A DNA stretch of 53,562 nt, from positions 1-53,562 of the forward strand of contig CALBXK010000370.1 of the NCBI GenBank assembly GCA_937890535.1, read 5' to 3'. The notes below the pieces were generated by a model that saw only the letters and a list, made by a program, of their open reading frames with translations, searched no databases and was not told where the DNA came from. The stretch's first letter is position 1; each line of letters opens with the position of its first letter. A program made the position numbers and the translations under genes. Below are positions 7,838 through 50,457 of this stretch, piece by piece. Source of the stretch: an uncultured Spartobacteria bacterium. Lineage in GTDB: Bacteria; Verrucomicrobiota; Verrucomicrobiia; Chthoniobacterales; Terrimicrobiaceae.

Positions 7838-10800
7838 CTATTTGACGACGATATTGACGAGCTTGCCTTGGACGACGATGACCTTGACGATGGTTTTTCC
7901 TGCGACGGATTCCTGGACTTTCGGCGAGGCGAGGGAGAGGGACTCCACGGCTTTGTCATCCGCCTTGACGCTGGCGGTGATTCGGTCGCGGAACTTTCCG
8001 TTGACCTGCACGACATATTCGACCTCATCGACGACGAGGTATTTTTCCTCATGAGTCGGCCAGGGTTGGGTGGAGGCGAGGCCTTCGAACTTGGGATGTT
8101 TCTTTGCGAGACGCGCCCAGAGTTCCTCGGTGATGTGGGGGGCCAGCGGAGAGAGGAGGGGCAGGAGAATTCGCAAGGCCGCCAGGGGACGGGGCGTCGC
8201 CTTCACAAACTCATTCGTGAAAACCATCAGTTGCGAAATCGCGGTGTTGAAGGTCAGAGCTTCGAAGTCTTCGGTGACTTTCTTTATCGTGGCATGGGCA
8301 ACCCGCAATTGGGAGGGCGTTAGCTCCGTCTCCTTCAGTTCGGAAGAAACCTTCCAGTCTCCTTCCTGCGTCTCTTCCATGGCGAGACGCCAGACGCGTC
8401 CGAGGAAACGATAAACGCCTTCCACACCCTTCATGCTCCAAGGTTTCATCTGTTCGAGAGGACCCATGAACATCTCGTAGAGCCGTAGCGAGTCGGCGCC
8501 GTATTCGGCGATGACGGTGTCGGGAGTGACGACATTGCCCCGGCTCTTGGACATTTTTTGGTTGTCGGGGCCGAGGATGATTCCCTGATTGACGAGACGT
8601 TGGAATGGCTCCGGGGTGGAGACGTGGCCGAGGTCGAAGAGGACCTTGTGCCAGAAGCGGGCGTAGAGAAGGTGCAGGACCGCGTGTTCGGTGCCTCCCA
8701 CATAGAGATCCACGCCCCCGGGATTCGGGATTTTGGACTCGGGATTTTCTCCGGTCATCCAGAATTTTTCAGCGTCCTCGCCCACGAAACGTTTTCGATT
8801 CTTGGTGTCACAGAACCTGAGGTAATACCAACACGAGCCCGCCCATTGGGGCATGGTATTGGTTTCGCGGGTGGCTTTCTCCGAGTAGCGAAGCCAATCC
8901 GTGGCTTTGGAGAGTGGAGGTTCGGCGGTGCCGGTGGGTTTGAAGTCGTCCATCTCCGGCTGGATGACGGGCAATTCGCTTTCGTCGAGGGCGCGGTGCT
9001 GACCGTCCTCCCAGAGAATAGGGAAGGGTTCCCCCCAATAACGTTGGCGCGAAAAGAGCCAGTCTCGCAGCTTGTAGTTCACGGCGGAGCGACCGAGGGC
9101 TTTTTTTGCTAACCAGGTGATGATGGTCTGGCGGGCTTCCTGGGACGAGAGTCCGTCCAGGAAGCGTGAGTTGATCAGGGTGCCTTCGCCGGTGTGGCAG
9201 GCGATGGCGGCGGATTTTTTTTGGACCGTGGCCCCCTTGGCGTCATGATGGCTCCAGTCCTCCAGCCCGGCATTTTTCGGGTCGGTGAGAATCTGTTCGA
9301 GGCGGGCATTGAATTCTTTCTCGCTGGCGAGGGCCTGTTCGCAGGTGTCCTTTTGCCAGAACTCCCCGGAGCGCTTGAGGATCTTGTTGGCCGCGTAGCC
9401 GGTGAGAGATTTCCAGGATTGGACAATGCCTGCCGGGTTGTGATCGTCCAGAGGCACGAAGAGAGCGTGGACGTGATTGGGCATGACGCACCAAGCGAGG
9501 AGATCGTACTTTTTGCCGTCAAAATGTCTGAGTGCATTCTTGACGAGGTCGGCCACCTTGGCCTCCTTCAGCACGCAGTTCCCGTGTCCCTGATCCAAGA
9601 GCGGGTCGACGTGTTTTTTGTAGAACGTCATCCATTGGGAGGTTTCTTCGGGCGATAGGGGGTCTCCAGCTTCGGCCTTCTCAAGGAGGAGCGATGCGTC
9701 GGCGGTGAGTGAGTCCAACGCCTTGAGGGGCAGGGAGTCGGTGAGCCGGAAGGTGATGAAATGGGGAGGGGCCTTGGGATTCCAAGTGGGTCGGGTGGAT
9801 TCTTTTTCACCGCCGGATGTGGGGGCTTCCCCGGCGGGCTGGATCACCGGAAGGACTTTGAGTTTGAACTTTGCGGCAAAGGCAGCGTCCCGTTCATCAT
9901 GGGCCGGCACAGCCATGATGGCCCCGGTACCGTAACCTGTCAGGACGTAGTCGGCGATCCAGATCGGCAGAAGTTCGCTATTGACCGGGTTCATGGCGAA
10001 GGCGCCTGTGAAAACACCGGTTTTGCTCTTGCCGGGGTCGGCACGGTCGCGGTCGGATTTTCCTGAGACTTCCTTCTGATACGCCTCGACCGCGGCGCGT
10101 TGGGCGCTGGTGGTCAGTTTTGCCACGAGGCGATGTTCGGGGGACAAAACCATATAGGTTGCTCCGAAGAGAGTGTCAGGCCGGGTGGTGAAAACTTCGA
10201 CGGAATGCCGGGTGTTGAAGATGGTGAACGTGACCATCGCCCCCTCCGATCGCCCGATCCAGTTTTGTTGCAGAAGCTTGATGCCTTCGGGCCAATCGAG
10301 GCCATCGAGTTCGGAAATCAGGCGTTCGGCAAAGGCGGTGATGCGGAGCATCCATTGCCGCAGCGGGCGGCGTTCCACCGGGTGCCCTCCGACCTCGCTT
10401 TTGCCATCGATGACCTCCTCATTGGCGAGGACAGTGCCGAGTTCGGGGCACCAGTTCACCGGCATTTCAGCCACGTAGGCGAGGCGGACCTTGTCGGGGT
10501 GGGCACCCTTGAACGTGCTGATGGGTTCGGCCTTACGGGTGACGGGATTGAGCCAGGAGTTGTAGAGCTTGAGAAAAATCCACTGTGTCCAGCGGAAATA
10601 TTCTGGATCCGTGGTGCTGACCTCGCGGTTCCAATCGTAGCTGAAGCCAAGGGCTTGAAGCTGGGAGCGAAAGCGCTCCACATTGCGTTCGGTGGTGACA
10701 CGGGGGTGTTGGCCGGTCTTGATGGCGAATTGCTCGGCGGGGAGCCCGAAGGCATCCCATCCCATGGGGTGCAGAACATTGAAACCGCGCATACGCTTGA

Positions 10801-11023
10801 AGCGGGAGACGATGTCCGTGGCCGTGTATCCCTCGACGTGACCGACATGGAGTCCTTCGCCGCTCGGATAGGGAAACATGTCCAGGACATAGTACTTTGG
10901 TTTGGCCGGATCGAAGCCGGGATCACCGGGATTTTTGGCGACGAAGGCTCCTTCCTTCAGCCAGCGTTGTTGCCATCGGGTCTCGAAATCAGAAAAGGGA
11001 AATTGCTTGCGTTGGGCGGCCAT
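7838..11023 (-). CDS. leuS: Leucyl-tRNA synthetase with in-frame RAYT-like insertion in the CP1 editing domain
   Basis: [87 protein letters not shown] for [10 protein letters not shown] at 11023. Confidence 0.97.
9205..9840 (-). mobile_element. RAYT/Y1_Tnp (REP-associated HUH transposase)-like domain embedded in frame within leuS (boundaries approximate)
   Basis: [22 protein letters not shown]...[58 protein letters not shown]...[39 protein letters not shown]...NAGLEDW: canonical RAYT order including HUH (NHVHAL) and SWKS...FWQ blocks. Confidence 0.9.
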
Positions 11024-11042
11024 GATGAAAAGGGGTGGGAAT

Positions 11043-11654
11043 ATGGCAGAATCACATCCATCTGAAAACCATCGTTTGTTAGTTTCGACCCGGAATGCCC
11101 ATAAAGTGGGGGAAATTCGGGCCATCCTCGGGCCGGAATTTACGGTCTCCGACCTTTCGATTTTGCCCGGGATGGGGGAGGTTGAGGAGACTGGTGTCAC
11201 CTTCGAGGAAAATGCGACCCTCAAGGCGGTGGCAGCCTCGGGGCGGTTTGATGACTGGGTGATCGCGGATGATTCTGGTCTGGCGGTGGATGCCCTGGGA
11301 GGCGCGCCCGGGGTACATTCCGCCCGTTATTCCGGGGCCGGGGCGACGGACGCGGCCAATAAGGCCCTGCTTCTAAAAAATCTGGCCGGGGTGCGAGGTA
11401 AGGACCGTTCCGCCCGCTTTTGGTGCCTGATCGTGCTGGCGAGGGCGGGCCGGAAGCTGGCGGCGTTTTCAGGCACCGTGGAGGGGATCATCGTCCCTGT
11501 CGCCAAGGGAGAAGGGGGATTCGGCTATGATTCTCTCTTTCTGCCGGATGGGCATTGCGAAACATTTGGACAACTCCCGGCCGCGGTGAAAAACCAGCTC
11601 AGCCATCGGGCACGGGCCTTGGAAAAACTCCGCGACTGGCGGGGTTGGTGGTGA
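11043..11654 (+). CDS. rdgB: XTP/dITP diphosphatase (RdgB/HAM1 family)
   Basis: [18 protein letters not shown]...[10 protein letters not shown]...[26 protein letters not shown]...[13 protein letters not shown]...SHRARAL. Confidence 0.95.
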
Positions 11655-18674: not shown

Positions 18675-21404
18675 ATGACCAGTTATAAGGATACCCTGAA
18701 TCTTCCCCAAACCGATTTTCCGATGAAGGCCGGTCTTACGACCCGTGAACCGGAGATGTTGGCCAGCTGGGAGCAAGCCGGACTCTACCAGCAGATTCAG
18801 GAAGCGAGAAAAGACGCGCCTCTCTTTGTCCTTCATGATGGTCCGCCCTTTGCCAATGGCGATGTCCACATGGGAACGGCTCTGAACAAGGTGCTGAAGG
18901 ATTTTATCGTCAAGTCCCGCACCATGCTCGGCTTTCAGGCGCCTTATGTTCCCGGATGGGACTGTCACGGTTTGCCGATCGAATTCAAAGTGGTGAAGGA
19001 AACCCGGGGGCTTTCGCCGGTTGAGGTACGGAAGCGTTCCGAGGAATACGCCCGCAAGTTTGTTGAGATTCAGAAGCGGCAGTTTCGTCGCTTGGGAGTG
19101 CTGGGGGAATGGGAAAAGCCCTATCTGACATTGGACCCCGGGTATGAAGCGGAAATCCTCCGGGCCTTCGGACGCTTCGTCGAAAAGGGTCTCGTCTATC
19201 AAAGTCAAAAGCCGGTCCTGTGGAGCACGGGGGCGCAGACGGCTCTGGCCGAGGCGGAGGTGGAATATGCACCGCGCACCGATCCGGCGGTTTATGTCAA
19301 ATTTCCCCTCGGGGACGCGGCAATCCCGGAGGGATTGCGGGACCGCTTGAGCAGTGATTGTGGATTCGTGATCTGGACGACGACCCCGTGGACGTTGCCG
19401 GCCAATGTGGCGATCGCTCTTGATCCCAAGGCCGAGTATGTCATCGGAGATTTTGGGGGAACCTGGCTGATCATGGCGCGCGACCGGGTGGAAGCCTTCA
19501 CCGAAGAAACCGGGATGTCCCTTGTCGCTGAGCGGGGTTCGGTCCTGGGGGCGGATCTTCGCGGCATTGAGGTGGCGCATCCCTTCCTGCCTCGCATGTC
19601 CCGGGTGATTACGGCGGATTTTGTCACGATGGACTCCGGCACTGGTCAGGTCCATATCGCTCCGGGTCACGGGAAGGACGATTACGTGGCGGGTCAACAG
19701 AACGGCTTGCCCACGCTTTCTCCGGTCGATGAACACGGCAAGCTGACTGAGGAATGCGGGATGCCACAGTGGGTGGGAAAATACGTTTTCAAGGCCAACG
19801 CCGAGATCGTGGAGTTTCTTCGCGAGCAGGGCGTCCTCCTCGGAGCCAAGGATTATACCCACGATTATCCTCATTGCTGGCGTTCGAAAACGCCCGTGAT
19901 CTTTCGTGCCGTCGAACAATTTTTTATCAATGTGGATGCCCTCCGGGAGGGTGCCTTGAAAGCCATCGACGAAACCAAATGGTTGCCGGCCTGGGGACGC
20001 AAGCGGATTGCCGGGACCGTGGAGTCCCGGCCCGACTGGTGTATTTCCCGCCAACGCACCTGGGGAGTTCCGTTGCCGGTGTTTTATGATGGCGAGGGCA
20101 AACCGATTCTCGATTCGGCGGTGATCGCGGCCGTGGCCGCGCTGGTGGAGGAAGAGGGGACCAATCTTTGGTTTGAGAAAGACGACGCCTGGTGGGCTGA
20201 GAAACTGGGATTGCCCTCCGGGGTCACCCGCCGGCTCGACACCCTGGATGTCTGGATCGACTCAGGGCTTTCCCACCAAGCGATCTTGCGTCGGCGTCCG
20301 GAACTTCAGTTTCCGGCCGATGTCTATTTGGAAGCGACCGACCAGCACCGCGGCTGGTTCCAGAGTTCGCTCCTCACCAGTGTGGCGCTGAATGGAGTCG
20401 CTCCCTACCGGACGGTCATCACCCACGGCTTCGTGGTGGACAAAGACGGCAAGAAGATCTCGAAATCGGCCCAGTACAAAAAGCCGACCCATGCCGAGCA
20501 TTTCGTCAATCAATACGGGGCCGATATTCTCCGGCTCTGGGTTGCCACCGTGCAATACACGGACGAAGTGCCCTTTGGAGAAGACGTGTTCAAACAGGTC
20601 GCGGAACGTTACCGGGGCTTTCGCAATGTCCTTCGGATTCTGCTGGCCAACGGAAGAAACACGCTCGGGTCGGATGTGAAGGCGGATTTGGCCGGAGCCA
20701 CCACGATCGACCGTTGGATGATGAGTCGCTTGCAGGAGGTCACCGCCAAATGCCGACACGCCTATGAGGCCTATGATTTCCGGGTGGTCTTCGACACCTT
20801 GAATCAGTTTTGTGCCGTCGATTTGAGCGCGATCTACATCGATACGACCAAGGATCGTTTATACTGTGATGCGGCCACCAGCCCGCGGCGGCAGGCCACG
20901 CAACGCGTGATGAAGGAGTGTTTCGAAACCCTCTGCCGGCTGCTGGCCCCGATTCTGGTCTTCACGGCCGACGAAGCCTGGGGGCACGGCGGTCACACCC
21001 GGAGTGTGCACCTGGAGACTTTTCCCGAACCGGATGCCACCCATCGCGACGAGGCGCTGGAGGCGAAGGTCGCGGAATGGCTGACGCTGCGAGGCATCGT
21101 TTACCAACAGGCCATCGAACCGGCCCGCCAGGAAAAACTCCTGACCAAACCTCTCGAAGCGAGCGTGACCCTGGAGGTTCCGGCAGCTCAGATTCCTGGC
21201 CTGGAGGCGTTCCGGATGGAACTGGAGGAGCTTTTCATCATCAGCGAATTGCGAATCGTCGGGGGAGTGGGCCCGGTTGCCCGGGTGGAAAAATCGCCCC
21301 ATTCCGGTTGCGCCCGGTGTTGGCGCTTTCTGCCGGACGTGGGCGGATCCCCAGGCTCTGAAGATCTTTGCGTGCGCTGCGCCGAGGCGGTTTCGGCCTC
21401 ATGA
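18675..21404 (+). CDS. ileS: Isoleucyl-tRNA synthetase
   Basis: FVLHDGPPFANGDVHMGTALNKVLKDFIVK, YVPGWDCHGLPIE, DGKKISKSAQ, C-terminal zinc-binding CARCWRFLPD...DLCVRCAEAV. Confidence 0.97.
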   Translation: MTSYKDTLNLPQTDFPMKAGLTTREPEMLASWEQAGLYQQIQEARKDAPLFVLHDGPPFANGDVHMGTALNKVLKDFIVKSRTMLGFQAPYVPGWDCHGLPIEFKVVKETRGLSPVEVRKRSEEYARKFVEIQKRQFRRLGVLGEWEKPYLTLDPGYEAEILRAFGRFVEKGLVYQSQKPVLWSTGAQTALAEAEVEYAPRTDPAVYVKFPLGDAAIPEGLRDRLSSDCGFVIWTTTPWTLPANVAIALDPKAEYVIGDFGGTWLIMARDRVEAFTEETGMSLVAERGSVLGADLRGIEVAHPFLPRMSRVITADFVTMDSGTGQVHIAPGHGKDDYVAGQQNGLPTLSPVDEHGKLTEECGMPQWVGKYVFKANAEIVEFLREQGVLLGAKDYTHDYPHCWRSKTPVIFRAVEQFFINVDALREGALKAIDETKWLPAWGRKRIAGTVESRPDWCISRQRTWGVPLPVFYDGEGKPILDSAVIAAVAALVEEEGTNLWFEKDDAWWAEKLGLPSGVTRRLDTLDVWIDSGLSHQAILRRRPELQFPADVYLEATDQHRGWFQSSLLTSVALNGVAPYRTVITHGFVVDKDGKKISKSAQYKKPTHAEHFVNQYGADILRLWVATVQYTDEVPFGEDVFKQVAERYRGFRNVLRILLANGRNTLGSDVKADLAGATTIDRWMMSRLQEVTAKCRHAYEAYDFRVVFDTLNQFCAVDLSAIYIDTTKDRLYCDAATSPRRQATQRVMKECFETLCRLLAPILVFTADEAWGHGGHTRSVHLETFPEPDATHRDEALEAKVAEWLTLRGIVYQQAIEPARQEKLLTKPLEASVTLEVPAAQIPGLEAFRMELEELFIISELRIVGGVGPVARVEKSPHSGCARCWRFLPDVGGSPGSEDLCVRCAEAVSAS

Positions 21405-44984: not shown

Positions 44985-46780
44985 ATGAACCCTCTGAAAT
45001 TCCACCCCGTTCCCGGCGCATGCGCTGGATTCTCACCGCCCTTGCCCTTGGGATTCTCGCCCTCGCGGTCGTTTTCATTGTGCCCCGCTGGTTCTCCGAC
45101 GGCCGCGCAACAGACGGAGCGACCCATGATCACGACAGCGCCTTACAATACTGGACGTGTGGGATGCACCCCTGGGTTGTTCTGCCGGAACCGGGGCTCT
45201 GTCCGATCTGCGGGATGGATCTCGTTCCGCTCGACCCGGCGAAGTTCACGGGCGAGATCGCGATCAGCCCGGTCATCGTGCAAAACATGGGAGTTCGGAT
45301 TCAGGAGGTCACGGAGGGTCCGTTGGTGAAAACAATTCGCACCGTCGGAATAGTGGATTACAACGAGGAGACCGTCCGGGACGTGAATACGAAGGTCTCC
45401 GGTTGGATTGAGAAGCTCTATGTCGACTCGCTCGGAGCGAAGGTCGAAAAGGGCGAGCCGCTCTTTTCGCTCTATTCTCCCCAGCTTTATTCGGCGCAGG
45501 AAGATTATCTCATCGCGAGGAAGGGCGGGCGGGGAACGACCGGAATCGATCTGCTGAAATCGGCCCGCACCCGGCTCGAATATTTCGACATCACCACGGC
45601 TCAGATCGAGGCCCTGGACAAACGCGGAACCGCCCAAAAGGCACTTGATGTGGGGAGTCCGTTTTCGGGCATTGTCATTGCCAAGCACGCCAACGAAGGC
45701 ATGAAGATCGAGCCGGGAATGCAGGTCTTTCGCATCGCGGACCTGACCAAGGTGTGGGTCCTCGTCACGGTCTATGAATACCAGCTTCCCTATGTCGAGG
45801 CCGGGCAGGATGCCGTGATGACGCTACCCTATATCCCAGGCAAGACTTTCGAGGGCAAGGTCATTTATGTCTATCCTTACCTGGACAAAAAAACCCGCGA
45901 AGCGCAGGTGCGGCTGGAGTTTGATAATTCGGATGGCATCTTGAAACCGGGCATGTTCACCACGGTGGAGCTGCGTCGACAGCTTGCGGCAGAAAAAACG
46001 CTTGTTCCGCGCTCGGCCGTCATTGACACCGGGGCTCGGCAGGTGGCCTTCGTGAGTCTGGGGGAGGGAAAATTCGAGCCACGAAACGTGGAGACCGGCG
46101 TGGCCACGGACGACGGAAATGTCGAGGTCCTCAGCGGGTTGGAACCCGGTGAGATGGTGGTCACTTCGGGACAGTTCCTTCTCGATAGCGAAGCGAACAT
46201 GCGCGAGGCGCTGGCAAAAATGGTGGAGGGCAACCCGGCCTCGGAACAAAAGGCGCAGGTCATCCTGGACGGGGGCAGCACGCTGGAGTCCCTGCCCGCT
46301 CCGCTTGAGTCGAATCTCATCAAGGCTCTCGATTCATATTTTTCGATTCAGGACGCTCTCGCCAACGACTCGACCGACGACGTCAGCGCTTCAGCTCGCT
46401 CGCTCGCCGCCGACATCGGAGAGATGCAAAAAATTCCAATTCCTGATGACCCGGATTTCTGGGGGCAACTTGCCGATCCGCTTGCGGTCATTGTGCGCGA
46501 AAGTGCGGCGGTTGCGACCGCCTCCGACATCGCCGCCAGTCGGCTGGCCTTTGGCAATCTCAGTGTTGCTTTTCGCAAGCTGGTGGGTGCCACCGGGATT
46601 CCCCTCGGATACCCTCAGGCGGTTCAAGCGATGCATTGCCCGATGTTTTCCGAAGATCAGGGTGGTGCCGTCTGGCTACAAATCGGCGATGAGGTGCGTA
46701 ATCCCTACATGGGCTCCGCCATGCTGGGTTGTTTTGACGATCGCAAGGTGATTCCAGTGACGGGAGGAGCCGAAAAATGA
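44981..46780 (+). CDS. cusB: RND periplasmic adaptor (CusB-like) with N-terminal heavy-metal-binding domain
   Basis: YWTCGMHPWVVLPEPGLCPICGMDLVPLDP; VSGWIEKLYVDSLGAKVEKGEPLFSLYSPQLYSAQEDYL; DLTKVWVLVTVYEYQLPYVEAGQ. Confidence 0.93.
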   Translation: MNEPSEIPPRSRRMRWILTALALGILALAVVFIVPRWFSDGRATDGATHDHDSALQYWTCGMHPWVVLPEPGLCPICGMDLVPLDPAKFTGEIAISPVIVQNMGVRIQEVTEGPLVKTIRTVGIVDYNEETVRDVNTKVSGWIEKLYVDSLGAKVEKGEPLFSLYSPQLYSAQEDYLIARKGGRGTTGIDLLKSARTRLEYFDITTAQIEALDKRGTAQKALDVGSPFSGIVIAKHANEGMKIEPGMQVFRIADLTKVWVLVTVYEYQLPYVEAGQDAVMTLPYIPGKTFEGKVIYVYPYLDKKTREAQVRLEFDNSDGILKPGMFTTVELRRQLAAEKTLVPRSAVIDTGARQVAFVSLGEGKFEPRNVETGVATDDGNVEVLSGLEPGEMVVTSGQFLLDSEANMREALAKMVEGNPASEQKAQVILDGGSTLESLPAPLESNLIKALDSYFSIQDALANDSTDDVSASARSLAADIGEMQKIPIPDDPDFWGQLADPLAVIVRESAAVATASDIAASRLAFGNLSVAFRKLVGATGIPLGYPQAVQAMHCPMFSEDQGGAVWLQIGDEVRNPYMGSAMLGCFDDRKVIPVTGGAEK

Positions 46781-49700
46781 TCGAGAAAGTGATCGATTTG
46801 TGCATCCGCAATCGGGTGATGGTGTTGTTGCTTACCGGCTTTCTCGTCCTTGCGGGGGTGTGGTCGGCGAGGAACATCACCATCGACGCCATCCCGGATC
46901 TTTCGGATGTCCAGGTCGTCATTCGCACCGAATATCAGGGGCAGGCTCCGCGCATTATCGAAGATCAGGTCACCTATCCGCTGACCACTGCGATGCTGTC
47001 GGTACCGTTTGCGAAACACGTGCGTGGGTACAGCCTTTTTGGGACCAGTTTTATCTATATCATCTTCGAAGATGGCACCGACCTTTACTGGGCGAGGAGC
47101 CGGGTGCTTGAGCAGCTCAATACGATCACGAACCGCTTGCCGCCGGGTGTCGCGCCGCAGCTCGGACCGGACGCGACCGGGGTCGGCTGGGTCTTTCAAT
47201 ACATCCTGACCACGGGGCCCTATTGTAAGCAGCATCCTCAGGGCCTTTTTCGCGATCCTGAGACCGATCAGTGGTATGGCAGCAGGGAGGATGCGCCCGC
47301 CGGGGACCGTGAACGCCTTGTCCGTCAGCGGATCTTTCCGGGGCTTACGAATTGCCCGCTCGACGGGTCCCCGTTGGTCCCGGCCGATCTTGACCTTTCG
47401 GACCTCCGTGGTTTGCAGGATTGGTACCTCCGCTACGAACTCACCGCCGTCGATGGGGTGAGCGAAGTCGCGCCGACGGGTGGGTTTGTGAAGCAATACC
47501 AAGTGGTCGTTGATCCGGTGAAGCTGCTCGCCCTGAACATTTCGCTGCAAAAAGTCAAGGTGGCTATCCAGCGCTCGAATAATGACGTGGGGGGTCGGAT
47601 TATCGCGCAGAGTGAGAACGAGTACATGGTTCGTGGCCTTGGCTATCTTGGCGCCCTTTCACCTGAGGAGTCCGAGGAGGCGGTGACATCCGGCAAGCGC
47701 CTCGAAGACGTGCGGTCCGAGAAAGTGCTGGAAGGATTGCGCAAAGTTTCGCTGGGGGTGAACGCGGAGGGTTCGCCGATCTATCTCGCCGATGTGGCAG
47801 ACATCCGCATCGGACCGGAAATTCGCCGAGGGATTGCGGAATGGAACGGGGAAGGGGAGGTCGTGGGGGGGACGATCATCATGCGTTCCGGCGAAAACGC
47901 AAAGCGCACCATTGAGAACGCCAGCAAGAAGCTCTACGAACTCGAGGCCGGACTGCCGCCCGGCGTCGCCATTGAGGTCGCTTATGATCGCTCGGACCTG
48001 ATCGAGCGGGCCGTCGAGACGCTCCAGCACACGCTTTTTGAGGAAATCTTCATCGTGGGCCTCGTCTGCATCGTCTTTCTTCTTCATGCCCGCAGTGCGC
48101 TTGTGGCCGCCTGCGTGTTGCCCCTCGGGGTGCTTGCCACTCTGACAATCATGTATGCCTTCGGCGTCAACGCCAACATCATGTCGCTCGGCGGCATTGC
48201 CATCTCCATTGGTGTGATGGTGGACAGTTCGATCATCATGGTTGAGAACGCGCACAAATATCTGGAGGCGGATCGGAAGCGGGTGGCGGCCGGATCCGCT
48301 CCGCAGCCGCATCTCCAACTCATCGGCGACGCTGCGAAAGAGGTGGGCCCCAGCCTCTTTTTTGCGCTGCTCATTATCGTTGTGAGTTTTCTGCCCATTT
48401 TCGTTCTGGGCGAACAGTCGGGCCGGATGTTCAAGCCGTTGGCTTTTTCTAAAACCTTTGCCATGACGGCGGGTGCCATCCTGGCCATCACGGTCATTCC
48501 TGTGTTGATGACCCTCTTCCTCACCGAACGCACATTGCCCGAGCGATGGAGTCGGCGTCGCAGTATTTTGACCTGTCTCACGGCCATCATTCTCCCGGCA
48601 GTCGTATTGTCCATTGTCCCGCTCCAGGCCCTCGATTCCTGGCGCGCCTGGCTGGTTGGTGGCTGGCTGGTTTTTAGTGCCATGATCCTGTGGCCCCAGC
48701 GCATCCCAAGCGAGGATCACAATCCGATCAGTGGGTTCCTCGAACGCATCTATGATCCGGCCTTCCGCTTTGTGATGCGCTTCAAGGGCCTCACTCTCGT
48801 CCTCGCCCTCATCGCTCTTGCGGCGACCTGGTTCCCCTTCAGCAAGTTGGGCAGCGAATTTATGCCTCCCCTTGAAGAGGGTGATTTGCTCTACATGCCT
48901 ACGACCGATCCTGGCCTGAGTATCACCAAGGCGCGTGAGATCCTTCAGCAGACCGACAAACTCATAAAACTTTTTCCCGAAGTCGAGTCGGTCTATGGCA
49001 AAATCGGACGGTCCGAGACCGCCACCGACCCCGCCCCGATTTCGATGGTGGAAACTACCATTCGTCTCCACCGCGATAAGGCGAAATGGCGCGAACGCTC
49101 CGTGGAGCGATTTTACGATGCCTGGCCACACTGGCTGGGCTGGCTGCCCCGCCAGATTTGGCCGTCGGTCCGCCCGATCACCCAGGAGGAACTCGTCTAT
49201 GGTTATGAATTGCCCAATGGCCAGGGCGGAACGCTCCATGCGCCCGGTTTGAATGATGCTGTCCAGTTTCCTGGTCTGACCAATGCCTGGACGATGCCGA
49301 TCAGGACCCGCATCGACATGCTCTCGACCGGGATCAAAACACCCGTCGGCATCAAGATCATGGGGTCAGACCTCAAAATTCTTTCCGAGCTTGCCAGCAA
49401 AGTTGCCAATGCGGTCAAGACCAGCCCGCAGACCCGGCCCTATACGTCGAGCGCATTTGCCGAAAAATCGGTCGGGGGAAACTACTTTGACATCGCTGTG
49501 GATCGTGACGAGATCGCCCGCTACGGCCTCAATGTCAGCGACGTGCAGGATGTCATCATGTCAGCACTCGGGGGAATGAATGTGACCTCGACCGTCGAGG
49601 GATTGGAGCGTTACCCGGTGAACGTTCGTTATCCCAGTGAACTCCGCGATGATATCGATGCGGTCAAGCGCACCCTCGTATCCACGCCATCGGGGGCCCA

Positions 49701-50457
49701 GGTGCCGCTGGCGCAGCTGGCCAACATTTCGATCCATAAAGGACCGCCCATGATCAAAAGCGAAAATGCGAGGCTGACCAGTTGGGTCTATGTCGATATT
49801 GTCGATATCGACGTGGGCACCTATGTCCAGCGCGCTCAGGAGGTCGTGGCTCGGGACGTCAAATTGCCGTCTGGCTACAGTATTGTCTGGTCCGGACAGT
49901 ACGAATACATGGAAGCTGCGGCGAAACGCCTGGCCGTTGCCATTCCCCTGGCGCTCGTCGGTATCGTCCTCCTGCTCTACCTCTCCACCCAAAGCTGGTT
50001 GCGGGTCTGCATTGTCCTCTTGGCGGTGCCATTTTCGCTCATCGGTGCCATTTGGTTCCTTTACTTCATGGATTACCATTTCTCGATCGCCGTTTGGGTT
50101 GGGCTCATCGCGTTGGCCGGTCTCGATGCCGAGACCGGCGTTGTGATGCTCCTCTATCTCGACACCAGCTACCAAAAATTCAGCGAAGCAGGGCGGATGC
50201 ACCATCCCCAGGATCTCTGGCATGCGGTTCACGACGGGGCCGTGAAGCGGATCCGACCTAAAACAATGACCGTCATGGCCATCTTCATGGGGCTCCTCCC
50301 GTTGCTTTGGGCCTCCGGCGCCGGAGCCGACACCATGCGGCGTCTCGCCGTACCTATGATTGGCGGTACGGTCTCCAGCTTTTTTCTCGAACTCCTGATC
50401 TACCCGGTCATCTACTATTTGGCCCGGAGGGTGAGTCTTGATCGCAAGGTGGCATAG
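46777..50457 (+). CDS. cusA: Heavy-metal RND efflux permease (CusA/CzcA family)
   Basis: VFLLHARSALVAACVLPLGVLATLTIMYAFGVNANIMSLGGIAISIGVMVDSSIIMVENAHK...FMPPLEEGDLLYMPTTDPG...GLIALAGLDAETGVVMLLYLD. Confidence 0.96.
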   Translation: MIEKVIDLCIRNRVMVLLLTGFLVLAGVWSARNITIDAIPDLSDVQVVIRTEYQGQAPRIIEDQVTYPLTTAMLSVPFAKHVRGYSLFGTSFIYIIFEDGTDLYWARSRVLEQLNTITNRLPPGVAPQLGPDATGVGWVFQYILTTGPYCKQHPQGLFRDPETDQWYGSREDAPAGDRERLVRQRIFPGLTNCPLDGSPLVPADLDLSDLRGLQDWYLRYELTAVDGVSEVAPTGGFVKQYQVVVDPVKLLALNISLQKVKVAIQRSNNDVGGRIIAQSENEYMVRGLGYLGALSPEESEEAVTSGKRLEDVRSEKVLEGLRKVSLGVNAEGSPIYLADVADIRIGPEIRRGIAEWNGEGEVVGGTIIMRSGENAKRTIENASKKLYELEAGLPPGVAIEVAYDRSDLIERAVETLQHTLFEEIFIVGLVCIVFLLHARSALVAACVLPLGVLATLTIMYAFGVNANIMSLGGIAISIGVMVDSSIIMVENAHKYLEADRKRVAAGSAPQPHLQLIGDAAKEVGPSLFFALLIIVVSFLPIFVLGEQSGRMFKPLAFSKTFAMTAGAILAITVIPVLMTLFLTERTLPERWSRRRSILTCLTAIILPAVVLSIVPLQALDSWRAWLVGGWLVFSAMILWPQRIPSEDHNPISGFLERIYDPAFRFVMRFKGLTLVLALIALAATWFPFSKLGSEFMPPLEEGDLLYMPTTDPGLSITKAREILQQTDKLIKLFPEVESVYGKIGRSETATDPAPISMVETTIRLHRDKAKWRERSVERFYDAWPHWLGWLPRQIWPSVRPITQEELVYGYELPNGQGGTLHAPGLNDAVQFPGLTNAWTMPIRTRIDMLSTGIKTPVGIKIMGSDLKILSELASKVANAVKTSPQTRPYTSSAFAEKSVGGNYFDIAVDRDEIARYGLNVSDVQDVIMSALGGMNVTSTVEGLERYPVNVRYPSELRDDIDAVKRTLVSTPSGAQVPLAQLANISIHKGPPMIKSENARLTSWVYVDIVDIDVGTYVQRAQEVVARDVKLPSGYSIVWSGQYEYMEAAAKRLAVAIPLALVGIVLLLYLSTQSWLRVCIVLLAVPFSLIGAIWFLYFMDYHFSIAVWVGLIALAGLDAETGVVMLLYLDTSYQKFSEAGRMHHPQDLWHAVHDGAVKRIRPKTMTVMAIFMGLLPLLWASGAGADTMRRLAVPMIGGTVSSFFLELLIYPVIYYLARRVSLDRKVA

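What the first reader, a model, noticed from the sequence alone, without database searches (positions are those of the whole stretch)
9205..9840. RAYT (REP-associated HUH transposase)-like domain embedded in frame in the editing domain of leucyl-tRNA synthetase
The only leuS in the window is one uninterrupted ORF of over 1000 codons with intact LeuRS signatures on both sides ([18 protein letters not shown] before; [19 protein letters not shown] after). Between VLPVIQPAG and [11 protein letters not shown], inside CP1, where bacterial LeuRS normally has only a short loop, about 190 aa read as a RAYT/Y1_Tnp domain: [60 protein letters not shown]. The HxH motif is kept. At the WQxxY position of the classic E. 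coli REP transposase the sequence is WQKDT, so the usual catalytic Tyr is absent there; some RAYT groups also lack Tyr at this site, so that alone does not prove inactivity. An essential translation enzyme carrying a transposase fold in its proofreading domain is either a tolerated insertion or an exaptation (ssDNA/RNA binding, altered editing, or coupling of REP dynamics to LeuRS expression).
Basis: partly seen in the sequence, partly recalled or inferred. Interest (0 to 1): 0.9.

Follow-up and report, generated by a model that had tools for sequence, protein, structure and literature searches.

The report
Transposase gene living inside leucyl-tRNA synthetase
In this verrucomicrobial genome the only leucyl-tRNA synthetase gene carries, in frame, a decayed REP-element transposase as an extra protein domain, and relatives show this is one worn copy of a widespread mobile element that lives inside essential proteins instead of breaking them.

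Summary
leuS (window 7838-11023, minus strand, about 1061 codons) is one open frame with intact LeuRS on both sides and about 208 extra residues in the CP1 editing domain. The insert is a RAYT domain: NCBIfam E=7e-13, Pfam 8e-5, best PDB fold match TnpA-REP 4ER8. No second leuS was found in this 94%-complete genome.

The story is larger. Seven relatives' LeuRS carry RAYTs at this loop; dozens of close relatives do not (pairs 96-97% identical differ). Two unrelated RAYT clades entered the same loop. Intact copies end in translated REP palindromes whose copies fill some genomes (146 in the sister species, about 105 in another, none here). In one species pair insert and REPs are younger than the flanking gene (7.5% vs 25.5% third-position differences, p=1e-10). 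The same REP-RAYT-REP unit sits in frame in ValRS, AlaRS, ThrRS, CarB, ClpB, RecG, MetH, IspG, FabZ, Sua5 and R-M genes across phyla.

Best reading: REPtrons that insert as translated guest domains in tolerant loops of essential proteins. The window copy has lost its REPs and is a decaying relic, not an evident exaptation. In-frame solo REPs are known (PMC3733652); an embedded transposase I could not find described. Mobility and expression are inferred.

The parts
7838..11023 (-). leuS, leucyl-tRNA synthetase with embedded RAYT (about 1061 aa), only leuS found in the genome
9206..9829 (-). whole insert (about 208 residues) replacing the short CP1 loop of related LeuRS
   Evidence: loop comparison with about 20 empty LeuRS
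9254..9802 (-). RAYT (Y1/HUH) domain; AlphaFold pLDDT 90 alone, best PDB match 4ER8 (TnpA-REP)
9467..9475 (-). HUH motif (HVH), kept
   Evidence: sequence; invariant in 66 aligned RAYTs
9344..9346 (-). position of the catalytic Tyr, here Thr ([12 protein letters not shown]; most relatives WQxE[Y/S][F/Y]DxxxR)
9803..9829 (-). left linker where relatives have a translated REP; eroded, low confidence in the fold model
9200..9253 (-). right linker where relatives have a translated REP (HQQDADAT in the sister species, HHDAKGAT here); eroded, low confidence in the fold model
   Evidence: the homology of HHDAKGAT to the REP is an inference
9821..10267 (-). LeuRS editing domain up to the insertion point (PF13603, residues 251-399)
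8543..8557 (-). KMSKS signature, intact, downstream of the insert

Best explanation
The insert is a decayed copy of a RAYT-REP mobile element (REPtron) of a kind that lives in frame inside host proteins. SHOWN: the intact element is REP - RAYT - inverted REP; it has no stop codon in the host frame; it sits in variable loops of essential proteins; on paper it is translated as an extra domain between flexible linkers; it is present or absent between very close relatives; some of its REP families are dispersed as short REP pairs (REPINs) that are the two ends of the element without the transposase. INFERRED: the host protein stays active because the domain loops out of CP1; the RAYT, expressed from the leuS promoter as part of LeuRS, binds and cuts its REP hairpins as ssDNA and so moves REPINs and occasionally the whole unit; any imprecise deletion kills an essential gene, so the element is protected and only in-frame removal, for example between the short repeats shared by its two REPs, survives. 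In the window genome the REP family has vanished, the REP ends have eroded, and the transposase has changed at the Tyr position and at near-invariant D and R residues, so it is now a foldable but probably inactive passenger domain of LeuRS.
For: RAYT identity: (4ER8 E 1.5e-7). Same loop in LeuRS of G001, G011, G013, G020, G025, G056, G074. Presence/absence: G025 with insert vs G023 without, core 97/96% identical; G020 with vs G009 without, 96/97%; the insert label needs 7 changes on the core tree, at least 5 forced by well-supported branches. Two origins in the same loop: the RAYT tree puts G000+G001 with Sua5-embedded RAYTs (100/97) and the other LeuRS inserts in a separate clade (100/99). 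ValRS was hit at one site (WGHRIPxWY) by two RAYT clades. REP ends: GGGAGCACGGGCGTCCCGCCCGTG and its inverse; in G001 the LeuRS RAYT has one GGCATCGGC-type REP at each end, with 146 genome hits at up to 3 mismatches vs 2 for the reversed-pattern control, and only 7 weak hits in the window genome; G001 REP pairs repeat the element's left and right end types; G074 has about 105 copies with inverted pairs like its LeuRS element's ends. Younger than its host: G056/G074 insert 18/241 third-position differences vs 214/839 in flanks, p=1.3e-10, boundaries near the REPs; dS .11 vs .45-.49. RAYT dN/dS .04-.25. Scar: G008 LeuRS holds one REP reading as the 5' half of the left REP joined to the right REP. 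Ten hosts confirmed by family models together with the RAYT. 43 of 80 GTDB loci have the RAYT in a much longer ORF. Fold model: LeuRS fold (2BTE E 2e-70), low-confidence linkers at 398-407 and 593-604 exactly flanking the domain.
Against: No expression, protein or transposition data. REP copy number does not simply follow the embedded RAYT (G056 has 3 copies with a 94%-identical RAYT; G020 and G025 have only the two ends). G001 and G074 also carry other Y1 transposases, so mobilisation in trans by another enzyme is not excluded, although in the listed G001 places no other RAYT lies next to this REP. Many embedded RAYTs including G001's lack the Tyr. No target-site rule or exact insertion boundary could be fixed, because the loop evolves fast. 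The window copy is not evolving neutrally at the protein level (pN .33 vs pS .69 against G001, pS near saturation), so some constraint, at least on folding, remains.
Confidence: 0.82

Rival explanations
1. Exaptation: the RAYT domain was recruited by LeuRS for a host job (ssDNA/RNA or tRNA binding, altered editing, regulation of leuS through REPs).
For: HVH and the fold are kept in the window copy; dN/dS below 1 for the domain in several pairs; it sits in the editing domain of the only LeuRS.
Against: Absent from very close relatives; scattered gains and losses; two unrelated RAYTs at the same loop; same unit in proteins without a shared function; the window copy is the most eroded one.
Confidence: 0.08
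2. Inert relic of an ordinary one-off insertion: a standalone RAYT gene fell into leuS once and is merely tolerated; the wider pattern is coincidence.
For: The window copy does look inert (no REPs, Thr for Tyr, long branch).
Against: Same-loop insertion at least twice, dozens of in-frame insertions into other essential genes, and insert younger than host in one pair.
Confidence: 0.06
3. The insert is removed before the protein works: an intein, or an RNA intron whose ORF runs in frame with the exons.
For: Essential host genes, variable presence and insertion in the same site resemble inteins and mobile introns.
Against: No Hint/intein or LAGLIDADG domain; no group I/II intron or other Rfam match at the insert in eleven loci with several kinds of host; both junctions stay in frame and stop-free, which an RNA intron does not need; sites are variable loops, whereas inteins favour conserved active-site motifs (general knowledge).
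Confidence: 0.04

Closest known systems
RAYT / TnpA-REP and REPtrons (E. coli TnpA-REP, PDB 4ER8)
   Same: HUH transposase fold, WQxxY region, one RAYT flanked by inverted REPs, REPINs dispersed in the genome, often a single copy of the RAYT per genome
   Different: Known ones are free-standing genes; here the coding region has no stop in the host frame and is part of an essential host protein. Many have Ser/Thr/Asn at the Tyr position.
In-frame solo REPs and Rickettsia palindromic elements (RPE) in ORFs (described in PMC3733652)
   Same: Short palindromes inserted in frame in protein genes, including tRNA synthetases and DNA repair genes, and translated
   Different: Those encode about 20 to 82 residues and carry no transposase; here the transposase itself is inside the host protein.
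Inteins and mobile introns
   Same: Parasitic insertion into essential genes, presence/absence between close relatives, re-insertion at the same site
   Different: No splicing domain or ribozyme found; the guest apparently stays in the mature protein.
IS200/IS605 family (TnpA of IS608, ISDra2)
   Same: Y1 HUH fold, hairpin ends (Foldseek matches 2XM3, 2VJV)
   Different: Closer to RAYT by sequence and fold; flanked by REPs; in frame inside a host gene.

Membership tests
RAYT (REP-associated transposase) | Y1/HUH domain closer to TnpA-REP than to IS200 transposases | tested here: met
   NCBIfam REP_Tyr_transpos 7.1e-13 vs transpos_IS200 0.043; 4ER8 first by profile and by fold. The NCBIfam score 48.7 is below that model's own cut-off of 80.
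RAYT (REP-associated transposase) | HUH motif | tested here: met
   HVH at 9467-9475; invariant in 66 aligned RAYTs
RAYT (REP-associated transposase) | catalytic Tyr in the WQxxY region | tested here: not met
   Thr in the window copy; Ser in sister G001; Tyr in the other LeuRS inserts and 35 of 66 aligned RAYTs. So the window copy is RAYT-derived, not shown to be a working RAYT.
RAYT (REP-associated transposase) | flanking REPs and REP family in the genome | tested here: not met
   None of the two tested REP families in the window genome; met in G001, G074, G013, G020, G025
Leucyl-tRNA synthetase (bacterial) | complete family match with signatures on both sides of the insert | tested here: met
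   TIGR00396 3e-292; LHVGH, KMSKS; fold 2BTE E 1.9e-70
Leucyl-tRNA synthetase (bacterial) | aminoacylation and editing activity | not testable with these tools
   needs biochemistry
Intein | Hint splicing domain | tested here: not met
   no such Pfam match in P0001 or ten other hosts
Group I/II intron | ribozyme structure at the insert | tested here: not met
   no Rfam match but one unrelated tRNA in eleven loci
Mobile element | gain/loss and movement between genomes | tested here: met
   for the class; the window copy itself is not shown to be mobile

The most novel reading that the evidence does not exclude
A distinct lifestyle of mobile DNA: autonomous transposase elements that colonise essential genes as permanently translated guest domains (in-frame REPtrons), homing repeatedly to the same tolerant loops, using the host's promoter and its essentiality as protection, and spreading their REPs from inside aminoacyl-tRNA synthetases and other core enzymes. 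Many may use Ser or Thr in place of the Tyr.
Probability: 0.65. Interest if true: 0.93.

Novelty: new variant of a known kind. Interest (0 to 1): 0.86.

Why it matters
It shows a way for a transposase gene to persist in the most conserved genes of a cell without breaking them, gives natural maps of insertion-tolerant loops in tRNA synthetases, CarB, ClpB, RecG and others, offers a testable answer to how REP/RAYT systems are kept (expression and protection by an essential host), and warns that annotation pipelines are calling two-in-one proteins. The sister-species pair (conserved RAYT with 146 REP hits; decayed RAYT with none) is a ready-made before/after comparison.

Tried and rejected
Intein, group I/II intron and other structured RNA: no match. 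Assembly chimera: rejected because many independent assemblies have orthologous junctions. Second leuS: not found. Horizontal transfer of the whole leuS as the cause of the scatter: not needed for most (core identities follow genus; rdgB lies divergently upstream in the window and in G056), but G001's LeuRS core is itself odd. Exact target site and duplication: G025/G023 DNA compared, no clean rule. Some long ORFs around RAYTs are not true embeddings (L096 upstream of a recF-like frame, L037 tandem copies, L099, L101) and were not counted as hosts. Literature searches for embedded RAYTs gave nothing; most subscription papers and all bioRxiv preprints are not covered.

Full report
1. What is there. 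The minus-strand ORF at 7838-11224 encodes LeuRS (TIGR00396 E=3e-292); the likely start is the ATG at 11021-11023 ([10 protein letters not shown]). It is open throughout. Between the editing-domain motif VPAHDERD and the GEGTLINS segment, where related LeuRS have 11-20 residues, it has 217, of which about 208 are insert (window ~9206-9829). NCBIfam finds REP_Tyr_transpos there (7.1e-13) and Pfam Y1_Tnp (7.7e-5). The isolated domain folds with pLDDT 90 on an alignment of 66 sequences, and Foldseek's first hit is the E. coli RAYT 4ER8. In the full-length model the two lowest-confidence stretches (398-407, 593-604) are exactly the linkers around the domain, and the rest is LeuRS (2BTE). No second leuS was found (assembly 93.6% complete).

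2. Relatives. Of 58 genomes searched near G000, LeuRS of G001 (same genus), G011, G013, G020, G025 (same family) and G056 (another family) carry a RAYT in the same loop; G074 was added. The others checked have a short loop, and sampled members of other orders and classes of the phylum show no insert-spanning match (by split alignments). G025/G023 and G020/G009 are 96-97% identical in the LeuRS core yet differ in the insert. On the LeuRS core tree the insert needs 7 changes, at least 5 of them forced by well-supported branches. The order is therefore probably Chthoniobacterales (inference).

3. Anatomy of an intact copy. In G020: GGGAGCACGGGCGTCCCGCCCGTG ... RAYT ... CACGGGCGGGACGCCCGTGCTCCC, two inverted REPs translated as STGVPPV and TGGTPVLP. 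The RAYT has WQEEYYD, with Tyr at the position that aligns with the cleavage position of 4ER8 (the 4ER8 chain shows F there, which I recall is the Y115F mutant). The insert keeps the frame and is stop-free. G008 has no RAYT but a REP at the same place that reads as the left REP's first half joined to the right REP, as a deletion between the CACGGGCG repeats would give; G021/G016 have a weaker REP-like trace (the scar reading is an inference).

4. REPs elsewhere. G020 and G025 have that REP only at the two ends; G013 has 20, G056 3, G074 105, the window genome none. In G074 the dispersed units include inverted pairs whose two halves resemble the two ends of the leuS element. G001's element has another REP family (GGCATCGGCTTCCAGCCGATG left, a GGCATCTGCATCCTGCTGATG variant right); G001 has 146 hits against 2 for the reversed pattern, the window genome 7 weak ones. 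Many G001 copies are pairs with the left-end and right-end types in the element's order. Thus, between the two members of genus g1, one has the REP population and a conserved RAYT, the other has neither REPs nor conserved ends, and its RAYT branch is about 40 times longer (1.29 vs 0.031).

5. Movement. The RAYT tree separates G000/G001 (with RAYTs embedded in Sua5/threonylcarbamoyl-AMP synthase, 100/97) from the other LeuRS RAYTs (100/99). The same loop was therefore entered at least twice. In G056/G074 the insert and REPs are 95% identical with 18/241 third-position differences, the flanks 84-89% with 214/839 (p=1.3e-10), the change lying close to the REPs. The element is younger than the split of its host genes, so it arrived later or was converted. 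This is one pair; in G020/G025 and G011/G013 the insert is not younger. dN/dS of the RAYT is .04-.25 in these pairs, so its sequence is under constraint.

6. Not only LeuRS. A profile of the inserts against 147 genomes of the order gave many hits in long frames. Reading them shows RAYTs with REP-like flanks inside ValRS, CarB (about ten genomes, one site, one RAYT clade), ClpB (three), RecG, AlaRS, ThrRS (G001), MetH, Sua5, adenosine deaminase, and several restriction-modification proteins. Ten examples were confirmed by family models that match both host and RAYT. In GTDB, 43 of the best 80 loci have the RAYT in an ORF at least 150 aa longer than the domain; by eye about 38 have a recognisable host, including ValRS, AlaRS and FabZ in Planctomycetota, IspG in Akkermansiaceae, DnaE in Limisphaerales, MetH, DinG-like helicases, and DNA methylases in several phyla. 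These 80 were the best matches to a profile of embedded RAYTs, so the fraction is not an unbiased rate. ValRS and RecG, like LeuRS, were hit at the same site by RAYTs that are not each other's closest relatives.

7. How it most likely works. See best explanation. Shown: position, frame, ends, presence/absence, REP copies, relative ages. Inferred: translation into one polypeptide, host function kept, REP cutting by the embedded RAYT, protection by essentiality. The in-frame state itself needs no special targeting: an out-of-frame or antisense insertion into leuS would be lethal, so survivors are in frame. What is notable is how large a share of these RAYTs live this way.

8. The window copy. 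Thr at the Tyr position, E for the near-invariant D two residues on, and A for the near-invariant R six residues on; no REPs; long branch. It keeps HVH and a foldable sequence. I call it a relic passenger. An unrecognised host role cannot be excluded.

9. Novelty. REPs inserted in frame in ORFs, including tRNA synthetases, and Rickettsia RPEs are described in PMC3733652; the RAYT classification in PMC6006769 reports no such host fusions in the passages searched. I found no paper on RAYTs embedded in host proteins, within open-licence PMC. I rate the class a new variant of a known kind (REPtrons) with a real chance of being regarded as a new lifestyle of mobile DNA.

Noticed in passing
G001:C17:38644-41895 (L009): G001's LeuRS core is unusually divergent from its family (long branch, different N-terminal signatures such as HIGHPLQKTACDIV) although same genus as the window; possibly a replaced or recombinant leuS that still carries the RAYT.
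   Followed up: partly
A3 alignment, Tyr column: 31 of 66 aligned RAYTs lack Tyr (22 Ser, 5 Thr, 2 Asn, 1 Leu, 1 Ala) while W, the HUH motif and the D and R around it are kept; G001 with Ser has 146 REP hits. Suggests another nucleophile or a non-cutting RAYT class.
   Followed up: partly
L100 (ORF residues 769-974); L101 (ORF residues 79-309): RAYT domains themselves interrupted in frame by REP-like translated palindromes.
   Followed up: no
L037 (G008:C330:22155-23588): Two RAYT copies with equal scores in tandem with REP-like repeats between and after them, apparently a fresh duplication.
   Followed up: no
L106 (G001:C44), ThrRS: The window's sister species has a second, different in-frame RAYT (short class) in threonyl-tRNA synthetase.
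   Followed up: partly
L213-L232 (G001), e.g. L213 1975-2021: A second repeat in G001: two REP-like palindromes facing the other way inside a longer unit ending in GAGATGGT, with many near-identical copies.
   Followed up: no
L203, L204 (G074): REP pairs in tandem arrays with a period of about 222 bp.
   Followed up: no
window 18675-21404 (+): Isoleucyl-tRNA synthetase (TIGR00392), uninterrupted, in the same window as the interrupted LeuRS.
   Followed up: yes
window 46777-50457 (+): CusA/CzcA-type efflux pump of 1226 aa, longer than the 1051-position model, with a Cys-containing extra stretch near residues 145-205; an outer-membrane efflux protein and a heavy-metal P-type ATPase lie upstream.
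   Followed up: partly
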